This document shows, piece after piece, positions 19,541-58,314 of a stretch of DNA of 64,000 nucleotides. The notes beneath the pieces were generated by a model. The model was not told where the DNA came from, searched no databases, and was given only the letters and a program-made list of their open reading frames with translations. Numbering within the stretch: position 1 is the stretch's first letter; every line of letters starts with the position of its first letter. The translations under genes were made by a program, and so were the position numbers. The stretch comes from Gemmatimonadaceae bacterium (lineage in GTDB: Bacteria > Gemmatimonadota > Gemmatimonadetes > Gemmatimonadales > Gemmatimonadaceae): NCBI GenBank assembly GCA_030647905.1, contig JAUSJA010000027.1:1-64000 (forward strand), in the 5' to 3' direction.

Positions 19541-20971
19541 ATGGAACGTCTCAACCACGCTGGCACGATTGCCGGGCGTGCAATGCCCATGCGGTTGATC
19601 ACTGCAACGCTATTCGCTCTCGTCGCTCCGGGAATCCTCTCCGGCCAGTCGGGGGTGAGCGGTCCCGCGACGCGTGACTCCGTGAAGACTGAGAGCACAG
19701 ATTCGGCGACTCGTCTACGGCTCGGAGCCGTCTATGATGAGCTGCGGAAAGCGAACCCGCGCATTCAGGCAGCTGAAGCTCTCGCCCGGGCTGCTCGTGC
19801 CCGCATCCCCGCAGCAGGCCTTCCTCCGGACCCGCAGGTCCAGCTCGGATGGATGAACTACGAGCTGCCGGCGCTCAAGCCCATGGAAGTCCTTGGCATG
19901 ACGCAGCTGCAGGTGATGCAGATGCTGCCAATCGGTGGAAAGCTCGGGTTGTCGAAAAACATCGCGAGATCGCGCGCGACCGCGCAGTCGGAGCGCGCGC
20001 AGGAGGTATGGCGGGAGGTGCGGGCTCAAGCAGCGATGCCTTTCTACGAGCTATACCGTGCTGATCAGTCACTCGCGGTGATGCGGGAGACGATCCGTCT
20101 CCTCGGCGACACGCGCGAAGTGGTCAGCGTGATGTACCGCGTCGGCACTGGCAACCAGGCCGACGTGCTCCGGGCGCAGGTGCAGATCGCGCGAATGACG
20201 GAAGACACCCTGCGCATGCAGGCGATGCGAAGCGGAATGGCCGCGCGACTCAATGCCATCCTCGATCGCCCGCAGCCTACGTCGATCGCCTCGCCTGCGC
20301 TGCCGGTATTCCCGAAAGACATTCCGAGCCTGGACTCGCTCGAGCAGCTTGCCTACGCCGCGAGGCCGATGCTGAAGGCAGGGGCCGCAGAACTCTCAGC
20401 CGCCGAGTCAATGGAACGGCTGGCTCGAAAGGAGCTGCTGCCCGACCTTCAACTGGGAGTGCAGTACGCGCAGAGGGGCAAGGCCGGAAGCGCTGGCGAC
20501 ATGGCCGGTGGTACCGCCGGTGGAACGGAGCGCATGGGCAGCCTGATGATCGGCGCCAGCGTTCCCGTCTTCGCGCGCAGCCGGCAACTCAGGCTGCGCG
20601 ATGAGGCCGCGGCAATGCGCCAGATGGCCGCCGCGGACCTTGCAACGATGCGAGCTGACACTCGTGGCGCCCTGGGAGAGCGGTACGCTGACGTCGTTCG
20701 CGCCCGCCGGCTGGCAGACCTCTACCGCAACACAATCATTCCTCAGGCCAAGGCCGCCGTGTCGTCTGCACTTGCCGCCTATCGCGTAGGCAAGGTGGAC
20801 TTCATGACGCTGCTGGACAATCAGATGACTGTGAACAGATACCGCCAGGACCTGTCGGCACTGGAAGCCGAAGAGGGCCGCGCCTGGGCGGAGCTGGAAA
20901 TGCTGACCGGCACCGAACTGATCGAGACCAGCGCGACCTCTGCCGCACCCCTCTCCGGATATGGAAAATGA
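19541..20971 (+). CDS. TolC-family outer-membrane factor (CusC-like)
   Basis: The outer-membrane channel of the tripartite pump, 476 residues. After a signal region (an internal start MPMRLITATLFALVAPG at 19583 is also possible) come the two OEP repeats of long amphipathic helices: LGAVYDELRKANPRIQAAEA, LPPDPQVQLGWMNYELP, QMLPIGGKLGLSKNIARSRA and the mirror set in the second half. The ATG of the adaptor gene overlaps its stop (ATGA), placing it first in a C-B-A operon. Confidence 0.9.
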   Translation: MERLNHAGTIAGRAMPMRLITATLFALVAPGILSGQSGVSGPATRDSVKTESTDSATRLRLGAVYDELRKANPRIQAAEALARAARARIPAAGLPPDPQVQLGWMNYELPALKPMEVLGMTQLQVMQMLPIGGKLGLSKNIARSRATAQSERAQEVWREVRAQAAMPFYELYRADQSLAVMRETIRLLGDTREVVSVMYRVGTGNQADVLRAQVQIARMTEDTLRMQAMRSGMAARLNAILDRPQPTSIASPALPVFPKDIPSLDSLEQLAYAARPMLKAGAAELSAAESMERLARKELLPDLQLGVQYAQRGKAGSAGDMAGGTAGGTERMGSLMIGASVPVFARSRQLRLRDEAAAMRQMAAADLATMRADTRGALGERYADVVRARRLADLYRNTIIPQAKAAVSSALAAYRVGKVDFMTLLDNQMTVNRYRQDLSALEAEEGRAWAELEMLTGTELIETSATSAAPLSGYGK

Positions 20972-22233
20972 GCGACACACAATCGAATCCGTTCGGGCCG
21001 TCACGCTCGAAGTCGAATCGCATGATCGCCGTAGCAGGCGCTGGCACCCTGTTGGTCGCGGTAGCCATTGCGTGGCTCGCCACGAGAAAGCCGGAGGCGG
21101 CTGCTCCGGCCGCTCACGACCACTCGGCGCAGTCCGCGGCGAGCGAGGCAATGCCTGTCACGCTTTCGGCTGAGCAGTCGCAACGCATTGGCGTCACTTA
21201 CGCGGTGGCGACTCTCGCACCCGTCAAGCGGGAGATTCGGACCGTCGGGCAAGTGACGTTCGACGAGACCCGGGTCAAGACGATATCGCCCAAGATTGAG
21301 GGCTGGATCGAGCGCCTCCTCGTCAACTACACGGGGCAGCTCGTCACCGCGGGCCAGCCGCTGCTGACCATTTATTCCCCAATGCTCGTGACTGCGCAGG
21401 AAGAGCTTCTTCTCGCAAAGCGTCTTCGGGGCGACGTGCGCGAAGGAACGGGTGACGCGCGAAAGAGTGCAGACGAGCTCATCGAATCGGCAAGGCGCCG
21501 CCTCAGCTACTGGGACATTACGCAGAGTGAGATCTCCGCGATCGAGCGCACGGGACAGGTTCGAAAAACGCTCACACTTCGTTCGCCGTACAATGGCTAC
21601 GTCCTGGAAAAGAACGTTCTGGAAGGTCAGCGCGTGATGATGGGTGACGCGCTATACAAGCTCGCCGACTTGAGCGTAGTGTGGATCGAGGGAGAAGTGT
21701 TTGAGAAGGACCTCCCGGCCGTGCGTCTCGGCCAGCAGGTCACCGCCGAATTCGAGGGGCTCGCCGGGCAGAGAATGGCCGGCCGGATCACCTACGTCTA
21801 TCCGACAGTCAACCCGGAGACGCGCACCGCGAAGGTCAGGGTGGTGCTTCCAAACCCGGGGATGCGCCTCAAGCCGGGGATGTATGCGACGCTGCGCATG
21901 GACGCTTCGGCCTCGGTCGCAACGCTTGGCGTACCGCGCTCAGCGGTTCTGCAGACTGGCGAGCGCAGCCTGGTGTTCGTGAAGGCGCCCAATGGACAGC
22001 TGCAGCCGCGCGAAGTGAAAGTGGGGGCGGCGAGCGAGGATCGTATCGAGATCCTGTCCGGGCTCAGGGCGGGCGAGACAGTGGTCGCATCGGGGACGTT
22101 CCTCGTGGATGCCGAATCGAATCTCGGATCGCTTCTCGGCGGGATGGGCAACATGCCGGGGATGGATATCGGGCCACTGCCGGACAAGAAGGAAGCCGCT
22201 GCTTCTTCGCCCCCTGCCGTACGGAAGGAGTAG
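20968..22233 (+). CDS. RND periplasmic adaptor (membrane fusion protein, CusB-like)
   Basis: 421 residues. One N-terminal membrane anchor (MIAVAGAGTLLVAVAIAWLA), then HlyD/CusB-type barrel-sandwich and beta-barrel domains (RTVGQVTFDETRVKTISPKI, GWIERLLVNYTGQLV, LRSPYNGYVLEKNVLEGQRV). The N-terminal metal-binding CPMHP domain of many CusB relatives is absent. The tail (MGNMPGMDIGPLPDKK) is Met-rich, which fits Cu/Ag. Overlaps the TolC-like gene by four bases. Confidence 0.9.
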   Translation: MSDTQSNPFGPSRSKSNRMIAVAGAGTLLVAVAIAWLATRKPEAAAPAAHDHSAQSAASEAMPVTLSAEQSQRIGVTYAVATLAPVKREIRTVGQVTFDETRVKTISPKIEGWIERLLVNYTGQLVTAGQPLLTIYSPMLVTAQEELLLAKRLRGDVREGTGDARKSADELIESARRRLSYWDITQSEISAIERTGQVRKTLTLRSPYNGYVLEKNVLEGQRVMMGDALYKLADLSVVWIEGEVFEKDLPAVRLGQQVTAEFEGLAGQRMAGRITYVYPTVNPETRTAKVRVVLPNPGMRLKPGMYATLRMDASASVATLGVPRSAVLQTGERSLVFVKAPNGQLQPREVKVGAASEDRIEILSGLRAGETVVASGTFLVDAESNLGSLLGGMGNMPGMDIGPLPDKKEAAASSPPAVRKE

Positions 22234-22237
22234 GACG

Positions 22238-25200
22238 ATGCTCAAGCGAATCATCGAGTGGTCGGTCGCCAACAGGCTGATAGTAATTCTCTTTACCGTT
22301 GCGGCTGTCGCCGGTGGCGTGTGGGCCCTGAAGAACACGCCACTCGAAGCACTGCCCGACCTGTCCGATGTGCAGGTGATCGTTCAGGCTGACTACAGCG
22401 AGCAGGCTCCGCGCATCGTCGAGGATCAGGTGACGTACCCAATCGCCGCGGAGATGCTGAAAGTGCCTGGTGCGCGGACGGTTCGAGGTTACTCCTTCTT
22501 CGGCGTCTCCTTCGTGTATGTGATCTTCGAGGATGGAACCGACCTTTACTGGGCAAGGAGCCGCGTGCTCGAGTATCTGAGCGGAATCAAAGGGCGACTT
22601 CCGTCCACTGTGACCCCCACGCTGGGCCCCGACGCTACAGGCCTGGGCTGGATTTACCAGTATGCGCTCGAGGATACCACCGGAAAAACGAGTCTCGCCG
22701 GGCTGCGAAGTCTGCAGGACTGGTATCTCCGATACGCGCTCACCTCGGTTCCCGGAGTTTCAGAGGTCGCTTCCGTCGGTGGTTTCGAGAAGCAGTACCA
22801 GATAGACGTCGACCCCGCACGCCTGCTGGCTTATCGAATTCCGATTACCCAGGTGATGAGCGCAATTCAGAACGCCAACAGCGATGTCGGCGCCATGGTG
22901 ATGGAGCTGTCGGAACGAGAGTACATGGTTCGCGGTCTTGGCTACCTCAAGTCGCTCAGCGATATCGAGAACGTCGTCGTCGGCTCGACTCCGTCGGGCA
23001 CTCCGATAAGGGTTGCGGAGCTGGGGCGGGTGACCGTCGGCCCCGCCGTCCGGCGCGGCATAGCCGAGCTCGACGGAAGGGGCGATGCGGTCGGCGGTAT
23101 CGTCGTGATGCGCTTCGGTGAAAATGCGTTGACGACAATCGCGAACGTCAAGAAAAAGCTGGTGGAGATAGAGCGCGGCCTGCCGCCGGGTGTGGTGTTG
23201 CGAACCGTCTACGACCGCAGCGATCTGATCGAGCGGGCAATAGCCACTCTGCGCGACAAGCTGGTGGAGGAAACCATCATCGTTGCACTGGTGTGCTTCG
23301 TCTTTCTTTTCCATGCGCGGTCGGCGCTGGTCGCGATTCTCACGCTTCCCGTAGGCATCCTCATCGCTTTCATCGCGATGCGTTTCGTCGACGTGGGCGC
23401 AGACATCATGTCGCTCGGCGGAATCGCGATCGCCATCGGGGCGATGATAGACGCCGCGATAGTGATGATCGAGAACATGCACAAGCACCTCGAGCGAATG
23501 GCGACCGCGCATGGCCAGGCAGGAAATTTCCTGGACACGGGCGCGCTGACGGCGGAGCAGCGGCGTCTCGCTGTCATGGAATCCGCGAGAGAGGTCGGCC
23601 CCGCCCTCTTTTTCTCGCTACTCATCATCACCGTTTCATTCCTGCCTGTCTTCTCACTGGAAGGCCAGGAGGGCCGGCTGTTCTCGCCTCTCGCCTTCAC
23701 GAAGACGTTCGCGATGGCCGCGGCCGCACTACTGTCGGTGACGCTGGTGCCCGTGACCATGGGATTGTTCGTTCGCGGACGTATCTACCGCGAGCGCGCA
23801 AATCCGGTCAACCGCTGGCTGATTCGCATGTACCAGCCGCTCATCCGGGTCGTGCTTCGCCATCGCTGGCCCGTAATCATCGGTGCGGCAGCCACTCTCG
23901 TGCTCACGTGGATCCCATGGAAAGCGATCGGCAGCGAGTTCATGCCGCGTCTCGATGAAGGCACGATGCTCTTCATGCCCACCACTCTGCCGGGAGTGAG
24001 CGTGGCACGTGCCCGTGAGATCCTCCGGATCCAGGACTCCATCATCAAGCGATTCCCCGAGGTCGAGCACGTGTGGGGCAAAGCCGGCCGCGCCACAACG
24101 GCTACCGACCCGGCGGGCCTCGACATGTTCGAAACGACCATCACGCTCAAGCCCGAGGACCAATGGCGGAAGGGCGTGACCTACGATCGCCTCGTCGCCG
24201 AGATGGATTCCGCAACGCGGATGGCCGGTGTCACGAATGCGTGGACGATGCCAATCAAGGGGCGCATCGACATGCTCGCGACCGGGATTCGCACGCCCGT
24301 GGGCATCAAGATATTCGGCTCTGATCTCGCCGAGCTCGAGCGAATCGGCAAGCAGGTTGAACAGGCGGTTCAGTCTGTTCCGGGAACGCGCAGCGCCTTC
24401 GCCGAGCGCGCCGTGTCCGGCTACTATCTCGATATAGAAATAGACCGTGCGGCCGCTGCCCGGCATTCGGTAAATGTCGGCGATGTGCAGGCAGTGATAG
24501 CGACCGCAATCGGTGGAATGGCGGTGACGCAGACCGTGGAAGGGCGCGAGCGCTACGGCGTGCGCCTTCGTTATCCGCAGGAGCTGCGCAACACGCCTGA
24601 ACGGCTCGCTTCCGTACTGGTTCCGATCAGCCACAGCCTGCAGGGATCGTCGGCGTCTGGTGGAATGGGTTCGCCCGGCGGTGGACCGTCGGGCGGCGCC
24701 GCGCAGATCCCGCTCGGCCAGATCGCGACGATACGCCGCGTTGCGGGTCCGATGGTCGTGCGCACTGAGGACGCTCTGCCCACTGCGTGGGTGTACGTGG
24801 ATGTCGCAGGCCGGGACATCGGCAGTTACGTCGCGGAAGCACAGCGTGTCGTCGCATCCCGGGTGACGCTTCCACCGGGCTATACGCTGACCTGGAGCGG
24901 CCAGTACGAATACATGGAGCGCGCAAAGAAGAAGATGATGCTGGTCGTGCCCGCCACGCTCGCGATCATCGTACTGCTGCTTTACTTCAATTTTCGAAGT
25001 GTGCCCGAGACTGCCATTGTGATGCTGTCACTGCCGTTCTCTATAGTCGGCGGCATGTGGTTCATCTGGGCGCTCGGTTACGACTGGTCGGTGGCTGTGG
25101 CGATCGGGTTCATCGCGCTGGCTGGTGTTGCGGCGGAGACGGGGGTCGTGATGCTGATATATCTCGACCAGGCGTGGGAGGCGGCGGTTGCCGCAGCCCG

Positions 25201-25528
25201 GGACGAGGGCCGCCGGCCTTCGCTCCGCAACCTCTACGACGCCGTGATGGAGGGAGCCGTGGGACGCGTGCGCCCGAAATTGATGACCGTGACCGCGATC
25301 ATGGGAGGGTTGCTTCCCATTCTCTGGGGTAGCGGGACCGGTGCGAGCGTGATGAAGCGCATCGCCGCGCCGATGATCGGCGGGATGGTCTCCAGCACTG
25401 TACTGACGCTGCTCGTCATTCCGGCGGTGTACACGCTCTGGAAAGAGCGAGAGCTCGCGGCTGCTTCGCCAACGCCTGCGCCTGAAGGCCCGGCAACCCC
25501 TGATGAAAAGGAAGGCCAGGAGCGGTGA
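22238..25528 (+). CDS. cusA: Heavy-metal RND efflux pump (CusA/CzcA family)
   Basis: The inner-membrane proton-driven pump, 1096 residues with the usual twelve-helix, two-loop plan. TM4 carries [20 protein letters not shown], the HME-RND signature with the proton-relay Asp; AIDAAI/V in this form is closer to CusA (Cu, Ag) than to CzcA. Opening [16 protein letters not shown] is standard. A clear AAGGAG (22225-22230) precedes ATG 22238. A Gly/Ser-rich insert ([18 protein letters not shown]) interrupts the second periplasmic half. The acetate kinase gene starts just after it, with no gap for a separate promoter. Confidence 0.92.
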
Positions 25529-30208: not shown

Positions 30209-30646
30209 ATGTTACCACGCGTGATTTGGGTCATCGTCCCGCTGTTGGCGGGCAGTTTAGTCGCCGGCTGTGGCAGGACGTCTTCGGCTTCAACCGACCA
30301 CGAGCTCAAGATGGCTCCGATGTCGATGATGCCTGAAGCAGTGCAGAGTGCTGCCGCAGTGACACAGCAGTCATATCAGTTCGCCGTCGCCAACCCCGAT
30401 GTCATGCAGCACATTCCTTGTTACTGCGGCTGCGGCAGTATGGGGCATACATCGAATTACTCCTGCTACGTCGAGAGCGTTGATGCCAAAGGCAACGTGA
30501 ACTTCGACTCGCACGCGCTCGGCTGCTCAATCTGCGTAGACATCACGCAAGACGCGATGCGCCTATCAAGACAGGGCCAGAGTCTGCAGGATATCAAGGC
30601 CTACGTTCACAAGACTTATAGCCGCTACGGCCCTTCAAACATGTAA
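30209..30646 (+). CDS. PCYCGC-motif lipoprotein
   Basis: 145 residues. Signal peptide with lipobox LVAGC (C21). The motif PCYCGCG (70-76) followed by SNYSCYVE (C86) and LGCSICVD (C106, C109) matches the PCYCGC lipoprotein family, six conserved cysteines suited to binding a metal or to thiol exchange outside the cytoplasmic membrane. It precedes two CuA-domain proteins and a membrane Fe-S protein, so a role in delivering copper to CuA sites is an attractive inference. A strong AGGAGG site precedes the ATG. Confidence 0.82.
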   Translation: MLPRVIWVIVPLLAGSLVAGCGRTSSASTDHELKMAPMSMMPEAVQSAAAVTQQSYQFAVANPDVMQHIPCYCGCGSMGHTSNYSCYVESVDAKGNVNFDSHALGCSICVDITQDAMRLSRQGQSLQDIKAYVHKTYSRYGPSNM

Positions 30647-30722
30647 TCAGAACTCACCACGGAGACACAGCGTGTTAGAAGTCTCGCCGTTCCTTTGAAC
30701 GTGAAATGGATTACCGGGAATC

Positions 30723-31184
30723 ATGACACGAGCTCGTTTACCACGGCGCTCAATGGTAGTGGGATTGATCGCAATAGCTATTGCGTTCGTCCCAATGCCG
30801 ACGACGATGGCGGCTCCCACCGATCGTCACTTCCGCATCGAGGCCAGCAGATTTCAATACACGCCCGCAGCGATGACTGTGAACCCCGGCGATCACGTCA
30901 CGATCGATCTGGTCGCGACTGATGTGGTGCATGGCCTCTACATCGACGGTTACGATCGCAGCGTCGTAGCCGATCCGGGGCAAACGGCGTCGTTGTCGTT
31001 TGTGGCCGATCAGGTGGGCACGTTTCGCTTTCGCTGTTCGGTGACGTGTGGCGCGCTGCATCCTTTCATGATCGGCAAGCTGAATGTTGGTAATAACGAT
31101 CTGCTGTGGCGGGGTCTCGGTCTTGCGATGCTGGCCGCCGTGGCCTCCGTGTGGTTGGCACGCCCCGGGGACAAACGTCAATGA
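30723..31184 (+). CDS. CuA-type cupredoxin protein (cytochrome oxidase subunit II-like), membrane-anchored
   Basis: 153 residues: signal or anchor helix (MVVGLIAIAIAFVPMP), a single cupredoxin domain, then a C-terminal membrane helix near 128-147. All side-chain CuA ligands are present: H70 (in VVHGLYIDG), C105, C109, H113 and M116 in CSVTCGALHPFM. The N-terminal two-helix hairpin of oxidase subunit II is missing, and no oxidase subunit I is near. It probably carries electrons in the periplasm. The stop overlaps the Fe-S protein start (ATGA). Confidence 0.85.
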   Translation: MTRARLPRRSMVVGLIAIAIAFVPMPTTMAAPTDRHFRIEASRFQYTPAAMTVNPGDHVTIDLVATDVVHGLYIDGYDRSVVADPGQTASLSFVADQVGTFRFRCSVTCGALHPFMIGKLNVGNNDLLWRGLGLAMLAAVASVWLARPGDKRQ

Positions 31185-32665
31185 CCCGGCACGACGTCAA
31201 TGAATCGGGTAACCGCGACGAGACGATCATCCCGCTACTGATACGCCCTGAGCCGCAGGCGCGAGAACGCCTGCGGCTCAGGCGTGAACCGCTGCGCGCT
31301 CACCGGGGCCTGGATGTGCTGCGCTGGCCGTTGATCAACACCCTGCTGCGCAATCGCTGGCCGCAGTTGATCGTCCGTGGCGTTGCGCTGGCTGGCTTCC
31401 TCATCGCAATCATAGCCGGGTTGATCGGCACGCCGGTGGGCAGCCACAACTTCGGCATCGTGGGCGTGTGGATTGCGTGGTGGGCGCTGTTGATGCTGAT
31501 CGCTGTGCCGGTCTTCGGACGCGGTTGGTGCAGCATCTGCCCCATTCCCATGCCAGGCGAATGGCTGCAAAACGGCGCGATCCTTGGCCCGCAGAAAGGA
31601 GGCCTGGGGCTCAATCGCAAATGGCCCAAGCGCTTCAGAAACATCTGGCTGCAGAACCTCGCGTTCACGCTGGTCGCCTTGTTCAGCGCCGTCGTACTCA
31701 CCCAACCCAGCATCACGGCGATCGTGCTAAGCACCTTCTTGTTCGTCGCTATTGGCACCAGTCTCATCTTTGAGCGGCGCGCTTTCTGCCGCTATCTGTG
31801 TCCGGTGGGCGGCTTCATCGGCCTGTATTCGCAACTCGCGCCGGTTGAGATTCGCGTGAAGGACACGGCCGTCTGCGCCGCGCACACCGCAAAATCATGC
31901 TACGTGGGCAGCGCCGGCGGCTACGGTTGCCCGTGGTTGTTGTTTCCCGGGGCGCTGACCAAAAACACGTACTGCGGCACGTGTCTGGAATGTATCCGCA
32001 CGTGTCCGTATGATAACATCGCCTTCAACATCCGATCGTTTGGCGCAGATCTACACAAACCGGCGAACCGCAAACTCGACGAAGCGTTCAAAGCCCTCAT
32101 CATGCTGGGCGCGGCGATCGTTTATTCCGCGGTCATGTTGGGACCGTGGGGCGCGCTGAAATCGGCCGCTTACAACATTGGTTCAGCGGCGTGGCTGGCA
32201 TATGCGCTGACGTTCCTCGGCTTCATCTTCGGCGCGTTGCCGGGACTGTATCTGTTGGCCGTCGCGATCGGCCGTAAACTGTCCAAGTCAACAGAGACGT
32301 TGAAGAAATCATTCATCGCGTTTGCGTATGCGCTCGTGCCGTTGGGCTTGATGGCCTGGATCGCGTTTAGCCTGTCGTTTGTGTTCAGTAACATCTCATA
32401 TTTGTGGCCGACGTTGAGCGATCCGTTAGGGCAAGGCTGGAATCTGTTTGGCACGGCGAACGTGAGCTGGCAACCGTATCTCACAGCGATTGTGCCGTTT
32501 CTGCAAACGGCCGTATTGATCGGCGGGTTGGTGTGGGCAAGTGTCACGGCGCGTCGCATCGCCGCCGAGAAACAATTGGGGCGCGGCACGATGTTGCAGG
32601 CCCTGCCGGTGATAGGCTTCTGTTTCGTCATCACCGCGGGCTTGATGGGGCTATTGATCGCATGA
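31181..32665 (+). CDS. NosR/NapH-like polytopic membrane protein with 4Fe-4S motifs
   Basis: 494 residues with multiple membrane helices and cysteine motifs typical of NapH/NosR/RdxA-type ferredoxins: GWCSICPIPMPG, FCRYLCPVGGF, and the cluster motif CGTCLECIRTCPYDN; an extra group is C-x6-C (VCAAHTAKSC) plus GCPW. Such proteins pass electrons from the quinol pool across or along the membrane. The classical double C-x2-C-x2-C-x3-CP set is only partly present. Start ATG overlaps the CuA gene stop; its own stop overlaps the next gene. TTG/GCG codon use differs somewhat from the core genes. Confidence 0.85.
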   Translation: MTRHDVNESGNRDETIIPLLIRPEPQARERLRLRREPLRAHRGLDVLRWPLINTLLRNRWPQLIVRGVALAGFLIAIIAGLIGTPVGSHNFGIVGVWIAWWALLMLIAVPVFGRGWCSICPIPMPGEWLQNGAILGPQKGGLGLNRKWPKRFRNIWLQNLAFTLVALFSAVVLTQPSITAIVLSTFLFVAIGTSLIFERRAFCRYLCPVGGFIGLYSQLAPVEIRVKDTAVCAAHTAKSCYVGSAGGYGCPWLLFPGALTKNTYCGTCLECIRTCPYDNIAFNIRSFGADLHKPANRKLDEAFKALIMLGAAIVYSAVMLGPWGALKSAAYNIGSAAWLAYALTFLGFIFGALPGLYLLAVAIGRKLSKSTETLKKSFIAFAYALVPLGLMAWIAFSLSFVFSNISYLWPTLSDPLGQGWNLFGTANVSWQPYLTAIVPFLQTAVLIGGLVWASVTARRIAAEKQLGRGTMLQALPVIGFCFVITAGLMGLLIA

Positions 32666-33639
32666 AGGCCGAACGCATTGCGCGACTATTGGTGATCGTG
32701 CTGGCGATCGGTTTGCCCGCACTGGTCGCACTCGCCCGATTGGCACCTGGCAGCACGATCGACATACATGGTGTCATGGCGGACGAGGGCGGCTGGACAC
32801 CGGGCGAACTCACCGCGAAAGCAGGTGTGCCGATCCACCTGCGCTTGACGTCCGATGACGTGATGCACGGCTTCGCCATCGGGAAACGTACCTGGCCGTC
32901 GGTCGAGGTAGTGCCGGGCAAGTGGACGACGACGACCGTCGTGTTTGATCGGCCCGGCAAATACACGTTCTATTGCACGCGCTGGTGCGGCCCCAATCAC
33001 TGGCGCATGCGCGGCACGATCGAAGTGACGGGCGATGAAACACACATGCGCGCTGAAACAACGCCGCTGTTTATCAGGCTGAAACTCGATCTGGATGCGC
33101 CGCATCCCACTGACAGGGTGCCGAGTGAGAAGCCGTCGGCATCGCGTGGCACCGCGTTGAACATCAAACCCGATCTCGCCGCCGACACCTATCGGACGCA
33201 GAGTCCCGCGCACGTCTGGCGTACATTGCGCGAGCGCGCGACGAGCCAATCGTTGAGCGATCAGCAAGTATGGGATCTCGTGGCCGCCGTGTGGCGCTCC
33301 AATACAACCGCCAAGCAACTGGCGGAAGGCCGCAAGTTGTATGAAGAGAACTGCGCCGCCTGTCACGGTGAAACCGGGCGGGGCGATGGGGTCATGGCGA
33401 CCTCATTGCAGAAGTCCGCGCCGTCTGATATGCCCGGGATGTTGGGGCATGGTACAATATCACCCGTCGATTTCACCAATGCTCGGAACATGCTGGGCGC
33501 GAGTTCAACGATTTTGCAAGGCAAGATCATTCGCGGCGGCATGGGTACTGGCATGCCCTACTGGGGACCGATCTTCACCGAATCGCAGATCTGGTCGATA
33601 GTCAATTATCTGTGGACGTTTCAGTTTGCTGATCCATGA
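32662..33639 (+). CDS. CuA cupredoxin-cytochrome c fusion protein
   Basis: 325 residues: N-terminal membrane anchor (LLVIVLAIGLPALVALA), cupredoxin domain with a full CuA ligand set at H69, C105, C109, H113 and M116 (CTRWCGPNHWRM), a linker of about 90 residues, then a class I cytochrome c with CAACH (231-235) and an axial Met in MGTGMPYWGP near 296. This domain order is that of CuA-cyt c subunit II proteins (caa3-type), but the first transmembrane hairpin is reduced and no subunit I gene is present. It ends a tightly overlapping three-gene unit. Positions of its CuA ligands match the upstream CuA protein almost exactly. Confidence 0.87.
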   Translation: MKAERIARLLVIVLAIGLPALVALARLAPGSTIDIHGVMADEGGWTPGELTAKAGVPIHLRLTSDDVMHGFAIGKRTWPSVEVVPGKWTTTTVVFDRPGKYTFYCTRWCGPNHWRMRGTIEVTGDETHMRAETTPLFIRLKLDLDAPHPTDRVPSEKPSASRGTALNIKPDLAADTYRTQSPAHVWRTLRERATSQSLSDQQVWDLVAAVWRSNTTAKQLAEGRKLYEENCAACHGETGRGDGVMATSLQKSAPSDMPGMLGHGTISPVDFTNARNMLGASSTILQGKIIRGGMGTGMPYWGPIFTESQIWSIVNYLWTFQFADP

Positions 33640-33746: not shown

Positions 33747-33867
33747 GTTGGTGGACACTTCACCCTTTGGGGGAGGAGGAGTCCCAATGCCGACACGCAG
33801 ATCGTATCCAAACGAGTTCAAAGAACAGCTGGTGGAGCTAGTCCGAGACGTCCGGACGCGCGAGTGA
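33747..33867 (+). mobile_element. IS3-type element scar with N-terminal transposase fragment
   Basis: At 33787 a short frame reads MPTRRSYPNEFKEQLVELVR and ends at a TGA at 33865-33867. This is the opening of an IS3-family OrfA helix-turn-helix transposase, only 26 residues long. The bases before it (GGTGGACACTTCACCC) look like an element end plus a GGAGGAGG ribosome-binding site. The rest of the element is gone, replaced by the gene remnant that follows. Confidence 0.65.
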
Positions 33868-34468
33868 AGCCCGGGAAGTGGAATGAGTATCTGGCCATGC
33901 GTGAGGGCATACTGGCGCTGAACGCGAAGCACCGGGATCTCCTGTCGAACGACCTCGGAGCGATAGCGGGGTTGCTGTTCGACGTCGGATCGAAGCGTTA
34001 CGCACCGCCACCACGAGCGGATGACGCGGAAGCGCGGCGCTCGTGGGAAGCGGACCTCGCACGAGTGCGCGAAGAGGCGGCGAAGTCTGACAAGGCGCTC
34101 GCCGCCGCGCGCGAAGGCGACCGAACGCACACCGAGATACAGGGCTGGCTTCGCGACCTTGGCCACGCGTTGGGGTTCGAGGTCTGGGTGGCGAGTAACG
34201 ACGTCGGCCGCCCGTATGCGGGTGGGCGGCTTGGCGACGGATGTATGAGCGCGCTGCCGGCGACGATCGACAACGCTCCGGGAGCAGAGGCGGTGCGGCT
34301 GATTGACATCCTCTGGCTGGAGCGCAGCTCCCGCGGCCGGCGTTCAGCCATGTCGCCGACCTTCGCGTGCGATTCCTTCCGTACGGCGAGCTGGAGCGTC
34401 ACCGCGACGCGATGGCGAGGTTTAGGCAAGGAATGCGACCGATCGAGGCGCTGGCGAAAGTGCTATAG
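33868..34468 (+). pseudogene. Remnant of a hypothetical protein gene, deleted and frameshifted
   Basis: The frame reads KWNEYLAMREGILALNAKHR, a charged helical middle, then WLRDLGHALGFEVWVASND, GRLGDGCMSALPA and AVRLIDILWLER, after which it becomes nonsense. In another frame the text resumes as FSHVADLRVRFLPYGELERH...RFRQGMRPIEALAKVL with a stop at 34466-34468. The two parts look like the middle and end of one protein with a core segment lost between them. The family looks familiar as a large uncharacterised, possibly nuclease-like protein, but I cannot name it. It directly abuts the transposase fragment. Confidence 0.6.
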
Positions 34469-34782: not shown

Positions 34783-34986
34783 GCGCCCAGACGTCACGTT
34801 CGCTCGGCTGAGGCGCAGCGAGGTGCCGGACTGAGAGACGAGAAAGCGCTGAAGCATTCGTGGACCTTCAGCGCACGTTCAGGCGATTCTCAGTATGGGC
34901 GGCATACGTTGTGCCATTCGCTGCGTGTCGCCGACGAGTCACAGCCGCCGCGTCTACTGTACACGCCCGAAGCGGGAACAACAGCC

Positions 34987-37431
34987 ATGACACCAGAGAA
35001 GGGAATCATCCTGGTCACGGGGTCAAACGGATTGATCGGCCAAGCCGTAATGCGGCGATTCGTCGGCCGCTTCACGGACGTCGTGGGCTTCGACCGCAAG
35101 GCGCCTGCGCCGCCACCACCCGGTTGTGTGCACGTCGCTGTCGAGATCACGTCCGACGAAAGCGTGCGAGAGGGCCTCCGCATGATTCGCGCGCATCATG
35201 GGGAGCGCATCGCGTCCGTGATCCATCTCGCCGCCTATTACGATTTCTTCGGCGAGCCGAGCCCCAAGTACGAGGAAATCACCGTGCAGGGGACCGGTCG
35301 TCTGCTGCGGGAGCTCCGCGCGCAGGGCTTTCAGATCGAGCAGTTCGTCTTCTCGAGCACGATGCTCGTCCACCGTCCCGGCGAGCCGGGCGAATTCATC
35401 ACTGAGGATTGGCCACTCGAGCCCACGTGGGCGTACCCCGAGTCCAAAGTCCGGACCGAACAGATCATCCATGATGGGCGCGGCGACATCCGCACCGTGC
35501 TGCTGCGCATCTCCGGCGTGTACGATGACCTCACTCATTCGATCCCGCTCGCGCACCAGATCCAACGGATCTACCAGCGGGACCTGACCAGCCGGGTCTA
35601 CTCCGGCTCAACCGCGCATGGACAGTCGTTCATGCACATGGACGACCTGATCGACGCTATCGAGCTGGTTGTGGAGCGCCGCACCGCGTTGCCGCCGGAA
35701 GTCCCGATCTTGCTCGGTGAACCCGAGGCGCTCAGTTACGATGAGCTGCAGCACACAATCGAACGCCTGATCCGCGAAACGAGCAAGGAAACCATCGAGA
35801 TTCCCGGCGCGCTGGCGCCGGTAGCCAAGGCGGGTGCATGGGTGCTCGACCACGTCCCCGGTCAGGAAGGGTTCATCAAGCCGTGGATGATCGATCGCGC
35901 GAACGACCACTACGACCTCGACATTACGCGGGCCCGTACACTGCTCGGATGGGAGCCGAAGCGTTCGCTGCGCGAGACGCTGCCGAAGATGGTGGCAGCG
36001 CTGAAGGCCGATCCGCTCGGCTGGTACCGCGAGAACAAGCTGGAGCCTCCGTCCGAGCTCGAGAAGACAGCCGGAAAGTCCGAGGCGCCGCACCAGGCCG
36101 ACCACGCCGGCCACGCGCCGATGGCGATGGCGCACGGCCAGGGTGCGCCCTGGGCGCATTTTGCCAACATGACGTTGGGCCTGTGGCTCATCACCAGCGC
36201 ATTCGCCCTCGGGTACCGCAGCACGGCGCTCCAGCTGAGCGACGTCGTGAGCGGGGCGCTCGTCATTATGCTCGCAGCGCTCTCGCTCTCGCGCCGTCCC
36301 TTCTGGAAGCTGTGGGCTCCGTGGGCGAACTCGCTGGTCGGCCTGTGGTTGCTCTTCGCCCCCCTGGTCTTCTGGGCGCCCACGGCCGCCGCCTACTCCA
36401 ACGACACGCTCGTCGGTGCGCTGGTCGTGGTGTTCGCCATCCTGGCGCCGGGGATGCCGATGCCACCGGGGATGAGCATGGAGCCCGGCCCGGACGTGCC
36501 GCCGGGCTGGTCCTACAACCCTTCAAGCTGGCCGCAGCGGGCGCCGATCATCGCGCTCGCGCTCGTCGGCTTTTTCCTCTCGCGGCAGATGGCCGCGTTT
36601 GAGCTCGGCCACGTCACCACGCTCACCGACCCGTTCTTCAGGATGGGCACGGAGCGCGTGCTGACCTCCGACGTCTCGCGCGCCTTCCCTATTCCCGATG
36701 CGGGACTCGGCGCCATCGCCTACATGGTTGAGTTCCTGATGGGCTTCATGGGCGACAAGCGACGGTGGCGGACGATGCCGTGGATGGTCACGTTCTTCGG
36801 AATCCTCGTCGTTCCACTCGGCATCGTCAGCATCACGTTGATCATCCTGCAGCCGCTCGCGGTGGGGGCATGGTGCACGCCGTGCCTCATCGCCGCGGTC
36901 GCGATGCTGATCATGATCGCGCTTACCCTCGACGAGGTCGTGGCCATGGGCCAGTTCCTCGTGCAGGCGCGGCGCGAGGGCCAGCCGTTCTGGCGCGTGT
37001 TCTGGCTGGGCGGCACGTTGCGCGACCTGCCGGAAGTCGGACCGACGCGCGCGGACGTGGTGAGCGCCAAGGCGATGGTCTGGGGGGTCGCGCTGCCATG
37101 GAATCTGCTTCTGTGCGCGGGACTCGGCGTGTGGCTGATGTTCACGCCCTCGGTGCTCGGAAGCGCGGGCACGGCCGCGCACAGCGACCATCTTTTCGGT
37201 GCGCTGATCGTGACCATTGCCGTTATCGCCCTGGCCGACGTGGGGCGCGCGGCACGGTTCGTCAACTTGTTTCTCGGTGCGTGGATCATCGCTGCACCAT
37301 GGCTGCTGGCCGGTGCCAGCTCTGCGTCCACGTGGAGCGACGCGATCGCGGGCGCGGTCGTGATCCTGCTCAGCTTCCCGCGAGGCCGCGTGGGCGAGCG
37401 CTATGGCACGTGGGAGCGCTTCATCCGATGA
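34987..37431 (+). CDS. NAD(P)-epimerase / SPW-repeat / VKOR fusion protein
   Basis: 814 residues. Domain order: an extended short-chain dehydrogenase/epimerase domain (TGSNGLIG at 11-18, SSTML and YPESK catalytic region) to about 350; a His/Met linker (HQADHAGHAPMAMAHG); two SPW-type membrane repeats (WAHFANMTLGLWLI, WANSLVGLWLLFAPLVFW); a vitamin K epoxide reductase-like membrane domain with WCTPC (W629, C630, C633); then another SPW-like pair (VNLFLGAWIIAAPWLLAG). The VKOR part suggests quinone-linked thiol oxidation, the epimerase part a nucleotide-sugar or small-molecule reductase on the cytosolic side. ATG 34987 gives the clean Rossmann start. It is followed by a Cys-pair-rich CBS protein. 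Confidence 0.8.
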   Translation: MTPEKGIILVTGSNGLIGQAVMRRFVGRFTDVVGFDRKAPAPPPPGCVHVAVEITSDESVREGLRMIRAHHGERIASVIHLAAYYDFFGEPSPKYEEITVQGTGRLLRELRAQGFQIEQFVFSSTMLVHRPGEPGEFITEDWPLEPTWAYPESKVRTEQIIHDGRGDIRTVLLRISGVYDDLTHSIPLAHQIQRIYQRDLTSRVYSGSTAHGQSFMHMDDLIDAIELVVERRTALPPEVPILLGEPEALSYDELQHTIERLIRETSKETIEIPGALAPVAKAGAWVLDHVPGQEGFIKPWMIDRANDHYDLDITRARTLLGWEPKRSLRETLPKMVAALKADPLGWYRENKLEPPSELEKTAGKSEAPHQADHAGHAPMAMAHGQGAPWAHFANMTLGLWLITSAFALGYRSTALQLSDVVSGALVIMLAALSLSRRPFWKLWAPWANSLVGLWLLFAPLVFWAPTAAAYSNDTLVGALVVVFAILAPGMPMPPGMSMEPGPDVPPGWSYNPSSWPQRAPIIALALVGFFLSRQMAAFELGHVTTLTDPFFRMGTERVLTSDVSRAFPIPDAGLGAIAYMVEFLMGFMGDKRRWRTMPWMVTFFGILVVPLGIVSITLIILQPLAVGAWCTPCLIAAVAMLIMIALTLDEVVAMGQFLVQARREGQPFWRVFWLGGTLRDLPEVGPTRADVVSAKAMVWGVALPWNLLLCAGLGVWLMFTPSVLGSAGTAAHSDHLFGALIVTIAVIALADVGRAARFVNLFLGAWIIAAPWLLAGASSASTWSDAIAGAVVILLSFPRGRVGERYGTWERFIR

Positions 37432-45650: not shown

Positions 45651-46031
45651 ATGAAAACGAGCGTTATTGAAGTGCACGACATGCTATCTGTATTGAGCGT
45701 CGACGAAGTGGAAAAGCGGCTTGGCGAGGTGCCGGGTGTCGAAAGCGCCACCGTGAATTTCGCTGCGGGAAACGCCACCGTGCGCTACGACGAAACCCGA
45801 CTCAGAGTCGCCGATATCAAGGTGATCGTGCACCAACGCGGGCATCAGTCCGCAGACGAATCCCTACCCAATCATGTGAGCGAACACGAGCCCACACGCG
45901 AGCGTGCTGTAGTGCCAACGCCGGACGCTGCGCCGGCCTCCGCTTCAATCCCAGCAGCCACTGTACCCCAAGCTTCCACGGTCGCACCCGCCGCCGTACC
46001 CGCGCCCGCCGCTTCCGCAGGCGGCGGATGA
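45651..46031 (+). CDS. Stand-alone HMA-like domain without CxxC, duplicate of the ATPase N-terminus
   Basis: 126 residues. The first 75 match the N-terminus of the ATPase at 46403 almost residue for residue ([43 protein letters not shown]). The fold is that of a heavy-metal-associated domain, but the metal site GMTCxxC is replaced by HDMLSVL, so no cysteine is available. A Pro/Ala-rich linker ends in AGGG and a stop where the ATPase copy continues. The upstream AATTAAGGAG is duplicated as well. It may be a regulator or decoy of the pump, or a leftover of tandem duplication. Confidence 0.72.
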   Translation: MKTSVIEVHDMLSVLSVDEVEKRLGEVPGVESATVNFAAGNATVRYDETRLRVADIKVIVHQRGHQSADESLPNHVSEHEPTRERAVVPTPDAAPASASIPAATVPQASTVAPAAVPAPAASAGGG

Positions 46032-55438: not shown

Positions 55439-55822
55439 ATGAGTTGTTGTAGTGATGTGATGAAACCAATCGAAGCGTCTTCGTGCTGTACGCTGCAAGA
55501 CACAGCGGCACATGCTGCGCGAGCGATACGCGATTCAGGCTGCGGCTGCGCGCCCGTGGTTGAGGATACAGAAAACCTCAAGCTTGTCGGCGTCGTCACC
55601 GAGCGCGACGTGTGTTGCAGCCTGGTGGCTGATGACCGTCATGCTTCCGAAGTTCGTGTCGAAGAGATCATGCGACGCTCGTTGTGGACAAGGCGGGCGG
55701 TTGCTGCGGCACAGTCAGCATGCACAGTTTGGAGAGGTCGTAGAAAACGCGGGGCCATCACCCAGGAAGTCATCGACATTCTGGCCGTGCTGAACGCGCG
55801 TTGCGGGCCGCATTTCCTCTGA
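55439..55822 (+). pseudogene. Damaged second copy of the CBS protein (79-bp deletion)
   Basis: Matches the CBS gene at 37570 through VEEIMR (MSCCSDVMKPIEASSCC, SGCGCAPVVEDTENLKL), then jumps out of frame. Compared with copy 1, 79 bp are missing between two CGT triplets (37811-37813 and 37890-37892), joined at 55680-55682. The frame then reads LWTRRAVAAAQSACTV and fuses with a 23-residue tail ([17 protein letters not shown]...). Only the first CBS motif is intact, so function is doubtful. Confidence 0.82.
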
Positions 55823-55860
55823 CAGACGCTACGGACGCAAACTCAACTTTTTTCGTACCC

Positions 55861-58314
55861 ATGGACGAGCACACTGAACACCGCGAATCTCCCGGCGCCA
55901 CCGCAATCGACCCGGTCTGCGGCATGAGCGTGCCCGTCACGAGCCCTTACCGATACGAGGCAGGGGGAGTCAATGTGATCTTCTGCGGTGCGAGCTGTCA
56001 TGATCGGTTTGTGAGCGACCCGATGAAGTACGCGCACGCACATGATCGAATACCTTCGGCGCCCGCCACAGCGCCGAGCGCCGGCCGCTACACCTGCCCA
56101 ATGCACCCAGACGTGCGCGCCGATCGGCCGGGTTCCTGTCAAAAGTGTGGAATGGCGCTTGAAGCGTCCTCCCCGCGCCCACCTGCGTCGAAGACCGAGT
56201 GGGTATGCCCGATGCACCCGGAGATTGTCCGCGATGCGCCGGGTGCCTGCCCGATCTGCGGCATGGCGCTCGAGCCGCGCTCGGCGCTGACCGCCGAGGA
56301 GGAAGAGAATCCCGAGCTTCACGACATGACTCGACGGTTCTGGCTTGCGACGCTCTTCACCATACCGCTGCTCCTGCTCGCGATGAGCGAGTACGTTCCT
56401 CCGCTCCAGAGTCTGCGCGCGTCGCTCATGTCGATCCGGGCCTGGACGGTCATGGAGCTCCTGCTGGCGACGCCCGTGTGCATCTGGGCCGCATGGCCGT
56501 TCTATGAGCGCGCCGTGCATTCGGTGAGGAACCGCAGCCTGAACATGTTCACTCTCATCGGGCTCGGCGTCTCCGTTGCATACGTCTACAGCGTGGTGGC
56601 GACCCTGATTCCGGGGATCTTTCCGGGATCATTCCGTGACCGGTCAGGCGAGGTCGCGGTATACTTCGAGGCGGCCGGCGTCATCGTGACGTTGATCCTG
56701 CTGGGGCAGGTCCTCGAGCTTCGGGCTCGCACTGCGACCGGCGCGGCCATTCGCAAGCTCCTTGGCCTCGCTCCGACCACGGCGCGCCGCATTCGGGCAG
56801 ATGGAAGCGAGGAAGACGTTCCGCTGGCGGTCGTGCAGGTTGGCGACCGGCTTCGGATCAGGCCCGGAGAGAAGGTCCCGGTTGATGGCATCGTGCTCGA
56901 TGGCGCGAGCTCGATCGACGAGTCGATGGTCACTGGCGAGTCGATACCAGTTGAGAAGCATGCCAACGATCGCGTCGTTGGAGCGACCGTCAATGGGACG
57001 GGCGCCCTCGTCATGCAAGCCGAGAAAGTGGGCGCGGACACGCTCCTCTCACGCATAGTCGCCCTGGTGGCGGACGCCCAACGAAGCCGTGCACCCATCC
57101 AGAAGCTTGCAGACGCTGTCGCAGGTTACTTCGTCCCAGTCGTCGTTGGCATCGCCGTCGTCACGTTCGTGGTGTGGAGCCTCGTTGGTCCTGAGCCACG
57201 AATGGCGCACGCGCTCATCAACGCGGTCGCCGTCGTCATCATCGCCTGCCCCTGTGCCCTCGGGCTCGCGACTCCGATGTCGATCATGGTCGCGACTGGC
57301 CAGGGTGCGACCATGGGCGTCCTCTTTCGCAACGCCGAGGCGATCGAGGTGATGCGCAAGGTGGATACACTGGTCGTGGACAAGACCGGAACCCTCACTG
57401 AGGGCAAGCCGAGGCTGATGTCCGTGCTGCCCGTTCCGGCGATCGACGAGGAGGCGCTTCTTCGTCTCGCCGCGACTCTCGAACGAGGAAGTGAGCACCC
57501 GCTTGCGGACGCCATCGTTTCAGGGAGCGAGGCTCGTGGTGTGAAGCTTGGCGAGGCATCGCAATTCGAGAGCATCACTGGCAAGGGCGTGCGCGGAACT
57601 GTGGACGGTCGCGCCGTCGCCCTGGGGAATCGTGCGCTCATTGACCAGCTGGGGGTCGCGCTCGGTCCGCTCGCGGAAAAGGCAGAGGCGCTGCGTGTCG
57701 GAGGACAGACAGTCATGTTCGTCGTGATCGACGGTGAGCCTGCGGGCCTCATTGGAGTCGCCGACCCTGTCAAGGAAAGCACGCCTGAGGCGATTCGCGC
57801 GCTTCACGACGAGGGCATCCGCATCGTGATGTTGACGGGAGACAGTCGCACGACAGCAGCGGCCGTGGCGAGGCAACTGAAGATCGACGAGGTGATCGCC
57901 GAGGTGCTACCAGACCAGAAGATCGATGTCGTGAAGCGCCTCCAGAAGGATGGGCGTTTCGTGGCTATGGCGGGCGACGGTATCAACGACGCTCCCGCGC
58001 TGGCGCAGGCGCAGGTCGGCATCGCCATGGGGACCGGCACTGATGTCGCGATGGAGAGTGCTTCCGTGACGCTGGTAAAGGGCGACCTCAGGGGGATCAT
58101 CCGTGCTCGCCGACTGTCGCGGAACACGATGCGGAACATCAGGCAGAACCTCTTCTTTGCGTTTATCTATAACGCGCTTGGCGTGCCGATCGCGGCTGGC
58201 GTTCTCTATCCGTTTTTTGGAGTGCTCCTGTCGCCCATCATTGCCGCGGCCGCCATGAGTTTCAGTTCGGTGTCTGTAGTGGGCAACGCGCTCAGGTTGC
58301 GGCGCATCGCGTGA
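55861..58314 (+). CDS. copA: Copper-exporting P1B-type ATPase (CopA) with YHS and two heavy-metal-binding domains
   Basis: 817 residues. N-terminal YHS domain ([22 protein letters not shown]), two CPMHP-type domains ([17 protein letters not shown] with [24 protein letters not shown] with CGMALE), then the ATPase core: [13 protein letters not shown]6 [41 protein letters not shown] and [14 protein letters not shown] indicates Cu(I)/Ag(I) export. ATG 55861 starts before the YHS domain; the frame is open upstream through TTG 55801. It converges with the methyltransferase-like gene at 58393. Confidence 0.95.

What the first reader, a model, noticed from the sequence alone, without database searches (positions are those of the whole stretch)
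30209..33639. CuA / Fe-S / CuA-cytochrome c electron-transfer block without a terminal enzyme
Four consecutive genes encode a PCYCGC lipoprotein, a one-domain CuA protein, a NosR/NapH-like membrane ferredoxin and a CuA-cytochrome c fusion. The last three overlap by 4 bp. Both CuA proteins keep the full ligand set (His, Cys-x3-Cys, His, Met) at nearly the same positions. CuA sites are known from cytochrome oxidase and N2O reductase, yet no oxidase subunit I or nosZ is present. The block could be a quinol-to-periplasm electron path serving an unknown copper enzyme or metal reductase, with the PCYCGC protein loading copper. The function is inference; the motifs are seen.
Basis: partly seen in the sequence, partly recalled or inferred. 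Interest (0 to 1): 0.78.

Follow-up and report, generated by a model that had tools for sequence, protein, structure and literature searches.

The report
Twin-CuA, iron-sulfur electron-transfer copper operon
Four genes encode what looks like a membrane-to-periplasm electron wire built from an iron-sulfur membrane protein and two purple-copper (CuA) proteins; relatives sit mostly in copper-resistance islands rather than beside an oxidase, so it may be an undescribed way for bacteria to control copper or feed outside enzymes with electrons.

Summary
The four genes and their motifs are real. The block PCYCGC / CuA / NapH-like / CuA-cytochrome c recurs, mostly in this order, in about 30 places in Chloroflexota and a few Gemmatimonadota. 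The three-gene core CuA-NapH-CuA reaches Limnochordaceae, Armatimonadota and Methanoperedens. CuA ligands and 11 Fe-S cysteines are invariant.

"No terminal enzyme" is true only locally: the same genome carries a full nosZ and two oxidase subunit I genes on other contigs. The block is not a detached piece of either. Of 101 nosZ-bearing genomes in the phylum, 97 lack it; most Chloroflexota carriers lack nosZ; several carriers lack any heme-copper oxidase. Only Limnochordaceae has nosZ directly downstream.

The strongest association is copper: 21 of 30 blocks lie within 15 kb of a copper P-type ATPase (1.3 expected). Relatives' neighbours include CopZ, multicopper oxidase, CusA-type RND and DUF411. 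PCYCGC genes without CuA also occur in copper loci.

Best reading: a NapH-type, probably quinol-fed module whose periplasmic carriers are two CuA proteins, working in copper redox handling (cupric reduction favoured, untested). The electron-transfer role is fairly secure; acceptor and direction are inference. A new variant of a known kind, acquired horizontally here.

The parts
30209..30646 (+). PCYCGC lipoprotein (lipobox Cys21; P-CYCGC at residues 70-75; further invariant H80, C86, H102, C106, C109)
   Evidence: Pfam PF13798 96 bits; NCBIfam NF041379 CYCXC (seleno)protein 70.7 bits, under its cut-off of 90; alignment A4; AlphaFold model pLDDT 83, weak CcmH-like resemblance
30723..31184 (+). 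CuA1: N-terminal signal-like segment, periplasmic CuA cupredoxin domain (H70, C105, C109, H113, M116), C-terminal transmembrane anchor
   Evidence: Pfam COX2 and Cupredoxin_1 over cut-off; best solved relatives are CuA domains of cytochrome oxidase and N2O reductase; ligands invariant; hydropathy
31181..32665 (+). NapH-like membrane protein, about 9 predicted TM helices, 11 invariant Cys (C117, C120, C203, C207, C232, C240, C250, C265, C268, C271, C275), all in positively charged, predicted cytoplasmic loops
   Evidence: Pfam Fer4_5 38.1 bits; NCBIfam napH_ only 26.9 bits, cut-off 213; alignment A1; hydropathy and charge
32662..33639 (+). CuA2-cytochrome c fusion: N-terminal TM anchor, CuA domain (H69, C105, C109, H113, M116), C-terminal c-type cytochrome domain with CAACH motif
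   Evidence: Pfam COX2, Cytochrom_C; alignment A3; hydropathy
33787..33868 (+). remnant resembling an IS3-type transposase orfA (MPTRRSYPNEFKEQLVELVRDVRTRE*) just behind the block, where relatives carry a DUF1573 gene
   Evidence: translation; identification by eye, not by a family search; no DUF1573 relative found in the genome
19541..25528 (+). tripartite metal efflux RND (outer-membrane factor 19541-20971, adaptor 20968-22233, CusA/CzcA-family pump 22109-25528): context
   Evidence: Pfam; TIGR00914 CusA/CzcA 1187.8 bits, cut-off 701
45651..46031 (+). protein with a heavy-metal-associated (HMA) domain: context
   Evidence: Pfam HMA 44.1 bits
46403..49021 (+). copper-translocating P-type ATPase: context
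   Evidence: TIGR01511 587 bits, cut-off 397
55801..58314 (+). second copper-translocating P-type ATPase, CopA-like: context
   Evidence: TIGR01511 598 bits

Best explanation
The block encodes a membrane-anchored electron-transfer module. The NapH-like Fe-S protein takes electrons from the menaquinol pool (inferred) and passes them out to two membrane-tethered CuA proteins in series, the second ending in a c-type heme. In this copper-island lineage the module most likely serves periplasmic copper redox handling: it keeps copper in the Cu(I) form that thiol lipoproteins (PCYCGC), CusCBA-type pumps and CopA-type ATPases bind and move, as the Fe-S protein CcoG is reported to do in proteobacteria. 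Shown here: the genes, intact cofactor ligands, recurrent order, and statistical association with copper islands. Inferred: cofactor loading, quinol as donor, order of electron flow, copper as final target and the reducing direction. In distant relatives the same core appears wired to other partners (N2O reductase in Limnochordaceae; a molybdopterin oxidoreductase next door in one Methanoperedens; NAD(P)H-type flavo-Fe-S proteins in others).
For: Motifs, ligands and Fe-S cysteines invariant. CuA domains match oxidase and N2OR CuA domains best. Block order recurs in Chloroflexota and Gemmatimonadota. 21 of 30 blocks lie within 15 kb of a TIGR01511 copper ATPase against 1.3 expected. Neighbours in relatives include CopZ, multicopper oxidase, cupredoxin, YtkA/FixH-like, DUF411 and CusA-type RND proteins. 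PCYCGC genes without CuA genes lie beside Cu ATPase, MCO and copper-binding proteins on an Exiguobacterium plasmid, beside a heavy-metal ATPase in Paenibacillus, and near CopA/CopZ genes in Bacillota genome G816. The window holds a CusA/CzcA pump and two Cu ATPases. Literature: CcoG, with two 4Fe-4S clusters, reduces Cu(II), and its loss raises Cu sensitivity; CopG-like proteins act in Cu resistance under anaerobic conditions (PMC7558416); NapH/NapG as a menaquinol-oxidising module (PMC3475470).
Against: No block-linked acceptor is proven; copper-island association does not show that copper is the substrate. The NapH-like protein fails the curated NapH model (26.9 bits vs 213) and gave no CcoG hit. 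Fe-S loops are predicted cytoplasmic and no trans-membrane cofactor to the periplasm is evident. The c-type heme suggests exchange with the general cytochrome pool. 9 of 30 blocks have no Cu ATPase within 15 kb; in the window the nearest is 14.5 kb away. The 15 kb threshold was set after seeing the data, and related genomes are not independent.
Confidence: 0.42

Rival explanations
1. Accessory electron donor to N2O reductase encoded elsewhere in the genome: quinol to NapH-like protein to CuA proteins to the CuA site of NosZ, replacing NosR or NosGH.
For: The genome has full-length nosZ; 4 of 5 Gemmatimonadota block carriers have nosZ against 97 of 293 others (Fisher p 0.047); in Limnochordaceae the order is CuA1-NapH-CuA2-nosZ with small gaps, nosD further on.
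Against: 97 of 101 nosZ-bearing genomes of the phylum lack the block; among the Chloroflexota carriers tested only G306 and G312 have nosZ; clade III L-NosZ is absent too; in the window's genome nosZ is on another contig.
Confidence: 0.18
2. A general bypass of the bc1 or alternative complex III: quinol oxidation delivered through CuA and cytochrome c to an aa3- or ba3-type oxidase.
For: The CuA2 protein carries a c-type heme domain; the genome and 32 of 38 genomes tested have heme-copper oxidases.
Against: Six carriers of the core lack any COX1-family gene at E<=1e-20 (G306, G312, G316, G318, G321, G506), though some are incomplete MAGs; COX1 is rarely nearby; it does not explain the copper-island setting.
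Confidence: 0.18
3. The CuA proteins are copper buffers, sensors or chaperones rather than electron carriers, and the NapH-like protein keeps their thiols or copper reduced.
For: Copper-island context; CuA1 weakly resembles the cuproprotein CopI; PCYCGC proteins stand alone in copper loci.
Against: Strict conservation of the complete CuA ligand set in both proteins and fusion of CuA2 to cytochrome c point to electron transfer; the core also occurs next to nosZ.
Confidence: 0.12
4. A thiol/selenol reductant system: the chain delivers electrons to the periplasmic thiol or selenol proteins that flank it (PCYCGC, DUF1573 with Cys-Cys or Cys-Sec).
For: DUF1573 genes flank the block in most relatives and use an in-frame TGA in 21 of 25 cases; TlpA- and CcdA-like genes are often nearby.
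Against: The window's genome shows no such DUF1573 protein; CuA potentials are high for disulfide reduction (general knowledge).
Confidence: 0.08

Closest known systems
NapGH menaquinol dehydrogenase module (also NosGH, NosR)
   Same: Multi-TM protein with CxxCP and CxxxCP motifs and a ferredoxin-type CxxCxxCxxxC motif as the membrane electron source for periplasmic reductases
   Different: No NapG; periplasmic carriers are two CuA proteins; about 9 rather than 4 TM helices; curated NapH score far under cut-off; no FMN domain annotated
CcoG (FixG/RdxA) cupric reductase
   Same: Membrane protein with 4Fe-4S clusters, linked to copper ATPases
   Different: No hit to a CcoG model; CuA partners and cytochrome c instead of cbb3 assembly genes; activity untested
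Cytochrome c oxidase subunit II / N2O reductase CuA domains
   Same: Full CuA ligand set and cupredoxin domain; CuA-cytochrome c fusion resembles subunit II of caa3-type oxidases
   Different: No subunit I or CuZ domain in the operon; one-domain protein with a C-terminal anchor; both score far below the CoxB and NosZ cut-offs
PmoD (CuA protein of methanotrophs; PMC6189053)
   Same: A CuA site outside oxidases and N2OR, tied to copper-dependent metabolism
   Different: PmoD forms CuA as a cupredoxin homodimer with a different ligand set; here the canonical ligands lie in each chain
CYCXC/PCYCGC (OS_HP4) and DUF1573/OS_HP2 (seleno)protein families
   Same: Window PCYCGC protein passes the Pfam family; relatives' DUF1573 carry Sec or Cys
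   Different: Both fall under the NCBIfam cut-offs; their linkage to a CuA-NapH module was not found in the papers searched

Membership tests
NapH (TIGR02163) | score over curated cut-off 213 bits | tested here: not met
   26.9 bits
NapH/NosR-like Fe-S membrane proteins, broad sense (Fer4_5) | Fer4_5 domain plus Cys motifs CxxCP, CxxxCP and CxxCxxCxxxC | tested here: met
   Pfam 38.1 bits over cut-off 22; motifs invariant in 22 rows
NapGH quinol dehydrogenase module | menaquinol oxidation by NapH with periplasmic NapG partner | not testable with these tools
   no NapG in the block; biochemistry needed
CcoG cupric reductase | match to a CcoG family model | tested here: inconclusive
   only NapH-type models hit at E<=0.01 in NCBIfam; presence of a CcoG model in the library was not checked separately
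CcoG cupric reductase | Cu(II) reduction | not testable with these tools
   no assay
Cytochrome c oxidase subunit II | full CuA ligand set in a COX2-type domain | tested here: met
   PF00116 over cut-off in both proteins; ligands invariant
Cytochrome c oxidase subunit II | CoxB model cut-off and a subunit I partner in the locus | tested here: not met
   41.4 and 45.9 bits against 147.7; COX1 genes lie on other contigs than the block
N2O reductase system | nosZ in the same locus | tested here: not met
   nosZ is at C26, block at C27; met only in the Limnochordaceae relative
PCYCGC (PF13798) | Pfam gathering score and PCYCGC motif | tested here: met
   96 bits, cut-off 25
CYCXC (seleno)protein (NF041379) | score over curated cut-off 90 bits | tested here: not met
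   70.7 bits

The most novel reading that the evidence does not exclude
A dedicated twin-CuA/NapH electron conduit, separate from oxidases and N2O reductase, that reduces periplasmic Cu(II) (or otherwise couples the quinone pool to copper homeostasis) and has been re-plugged in other lineages to N2O reductase and to cytosolic NAD(P)H or F420 flavoproteins.
Probability: 0.3. Interest if true: 0.8.

Novelty: new variant of a known kind. Interest (0 to 1): 0.6.

Why it matters
CuA is textbook equipment of cytochrome oxidase and N2O reductase. A recurrent operon with two CuA proteins and a NapH-like electron source, set in copper-resistance islands, would extend CuA to stand-alone electron wiring and give a testable respiratory link to copper homeostasis in lineages where the O2-dependent copper oxidase cannot work. 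The Limnochordaceae arrangement also offers a concrete candidate for the unknown electron donor of clade II N2O reductases that lack NosR or NosGH.

Tried and rejected
Detached piece of an oxidase or nos cluster: rejected by neighbourhoods and co-occurrence. Clade III L-NosZ as hidden terminal enzyme: no genome over cut-off; the three weak hits are ordinary nosZ genes. The 575-aa gene behind Anaerolineae blocks, first suspected to be nosZ, is a NarX-like histidine kinase with a NarL-like regulator; the ~665-aa gene behind other blocks is a GltD-like flavo-Fe-S protein. Solved structures of the NapH-like protein: none by sequence or by Foldseek (model pLDDT 76). PCYCGC fold: the CcmH N-terminal domain appears in three searches but weakly, so it is only a lead. 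Plasmid hits to the NapH-like protein (Deinococcus, haloarchaea, cyanobacteria) are distant, 25-31% identical, and the two contexts opened were uninformative. Literature searches found no description of this gene set.
Full report
Observation. Pfam assigns PCYCGC, COX2/cupredoxin, Fer4_5, and COX2 plus cytochrome c, each over the curated cut-off for at least one family. Both CuA proteins keep His, Cys-x3-Cys-x3-His-x2-Met, and the ligands fall at nearly the same residue numbers (70/105/109/113/116 and 69/105/109/113/116). All are invariant in the alignments of homologues. The best solved relatives of the one-domain protein are CuA domains of oxidases and N2O reductases.

Anatomy. Hydropathy and charge suggest that CuA1 has an N-terminal signal-like segment and a C-terminal anchor, that CuA2-cytochrome c has an N-terminal anchor, and that the NapH-like protein has about nine TM helices with every conserved Fe-S cysteine in positively charged, cytoplasmic loops. 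Eleven cysteines are invariant in 22 homologues. PCYCGC is a lipoprotein with further invariant Cys and His; its model (pLDDT 83) resembles the CcmH N-terminal domain only weakly.

The genome. The window is contig C27 of a 3.1 Mb genome. A same-family genome, G030, matches the record 'Gemmatimonas sp. isolate PR.004' (compare: G030 and G300 give identical places), so the host is taken as Gemmatimonadota. It does carry nosZ (C26, 932 bits) and two COX1 genes. 'Without a terminal enzyme' is therefore true of the window only. The block is absent from the eight other same-genus genomes listed, while its closest relative by identity is a Chloroflexota protein (75%). In the tree the window groups with two Gemmatimonadota sequences and two Chloroflexota sequences inside a mixed clade. 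GC of the block is 0.593 against 0.632 for the window, and a transposase-like remnant follows it. Horizontal acquisition is likely (inference).

Distribution. A scan of genome contigs gave 29 loci: Anaerolineae and other Chloroflexota, Gemmatimonadota, Limnochordaceae, Armatimonadota, Brocadiaceae and Methanoperedens. One 'Clostridiales' bin is near-identical to a Levilinea locus and is probably mis-binned. In 298 genomes of the window's phylum the close form occurs in five. In 301 genomes of the Chloroflexota phylum 51 have a NapH-like match at E<=1e-30, of which about 12 genomes score like the block form (over 600 bits). Two layers are visible: a three-gene core CuA1-NapH-CuA2, and the copper-island form in which PCYCGC precedes it, a c-type heme is fused to CuA2 and a DUF1573 gene adjoins it.

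What adjoins it. In Limnochordaceae the core lies directly upstream of nosZ. In one Methanoperedens, NapH and CuA2 follow a molybdopterin oxidoreductase set. In several other loci the neighbour is a GltD-like flavo-Fe-S protein, and in a second Methanoperedens an F420-hydrogenase-beta-like protein (identified by eye). In the copper-island form the neighbours are two-component genes, copper ATPases, CopZ, multicopper oxidases, cupredoxin, YtkA/FixH, DoxX and DUF2085 proteins, Lgt and TlpA/CcdA-like genes, and in Gemmatimonadota DUF411 and a CusA-type RND. Taking 30 blocks, 21 lie within 15 kb of a TIGR01511 copper ATPase where 1.3 would be expected from copy number and genome size (nominal P 7e-23). 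That P ignores common descent and a threshold chosen after seeing the data, so only the size of the effect should be used.

PCYCGC on its own. PCYCGC genes without CuA genes lie between a Cu-type P-ATPase and copper-binding, multicopper-oxidase and regulator genes on an Exiguobacterium plasmid, near a heavy-metal ATPase in Paenibacillus and near CopA/CopZ-type genes in genome G816, but not in Thermomicrobium or Priestia. This argues for a copper-related role that is not limited to loading CuA.

Testing the rivals. nosZ: 101 of 298 genomes of the phylum have it and 97 of these lack the block; 4 of 5 carriers have it (p 0.047), so a weak link cannot be excluded. Among the Chloroflexota carriers only two have nosZ. 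L-NosZ: none over cut-off. Oxidase: 32 of 38 carriers of the core have COX1, six have none.

Mechanism. By analogy with NapH, described as oxidising menaquinol and delivering electrons to a periplasmic adapter (PMC3475470), the NapH-like protein should be the electron source, with the two CuA domains and the heme as periplasmic carriers. How electrons pass from cytoplasmic Fe-S clusters to the periplasm is not evident, a puzzle shared with NapH and NosR (general knowledge). In the copper islands the simplest target is copper itself: the 4Fe-4S membrane protein CcoG reduces Cu(II), and its loss raises copper sensitivity (PMC7558416). Cupric reduction with Cu(I) captured by PCYCGC and exported by CusA/CopA-type pumps is the reading favoured here, with modest confidence. 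The electron-transfer role itself is much safer, about 0.75 in my judgement.

Membership. The NapH-like protein is not NapH by the curated model (26.9 against 213 bits). The CuA proteins are not subunit II of an oxidase in the full sense (CoxB score far under cut-off, no subunit I). The block works like a NapGH-type module; it is not filed as one.

Novelty and verdict. The papers searched hold no description of this gene set; only open-access papers were searched. It is a new variant of a known kind (periplasm-directed NapH-type electron modules) using CuA in an unusual way.

Noticed in passing
L034 10742-11053, L044 7738-8229, L136 14556-14843 and 18 further loci: The DUF1573-like gene beside the block stops at a TGA after '..EGC' while the frame runs on with a conserved tail; Cys replaces it in L035, L063, L064, L066. 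It is a likely selenoprotein (Cys-Sec); SelB is over cut-off in 24 of 25 genomes; the curated OS_HP2 (seleno)protein model matches only under its cut-off.
   Followed up: partly
L052 9402-13722 (same region L131): Limnochordaceae: CuA1, NapH-like, CuA2 and NosZ in one run with small gaps, a candidate electron route to a clade II N2O reductase.
   Followed up: partly
L051, L057, L058, L059, L133, L145, L150: NapH-like gene (with CuA2 in most) next to or fused with a GltD-like flavo-Fe-S protein: a possible cytosolic NAD(P)H donor to the same core.
   Followed up: partly
L136 7297-8676, L140 4853-6232: A second, more distant NapH-like gene preceded by a YtkA-like protein about 5-6 kb from the block in copper islands.
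   Followed up: no
L045: 'Clostridiales bacterium PH28_bin88' contig is near-identical in gene layout to L044 (Levilinea, Chloroflexota): probably mis-binned.
   Followed up: no
window 34909-37431: One long ORF joins an NAD-dependent epimerase domain, SPW repeats and a VKOR domain, an unusual fusion.
   Followed up: no
G641:C8:2665-3000, G716:C1:1231253-1231585: PCYCGC genes of two genomes have an in-frame TGA, likely Sec versions; the second lies near a P-type ATPase and a NapH-like gene.
   Followed up: partly
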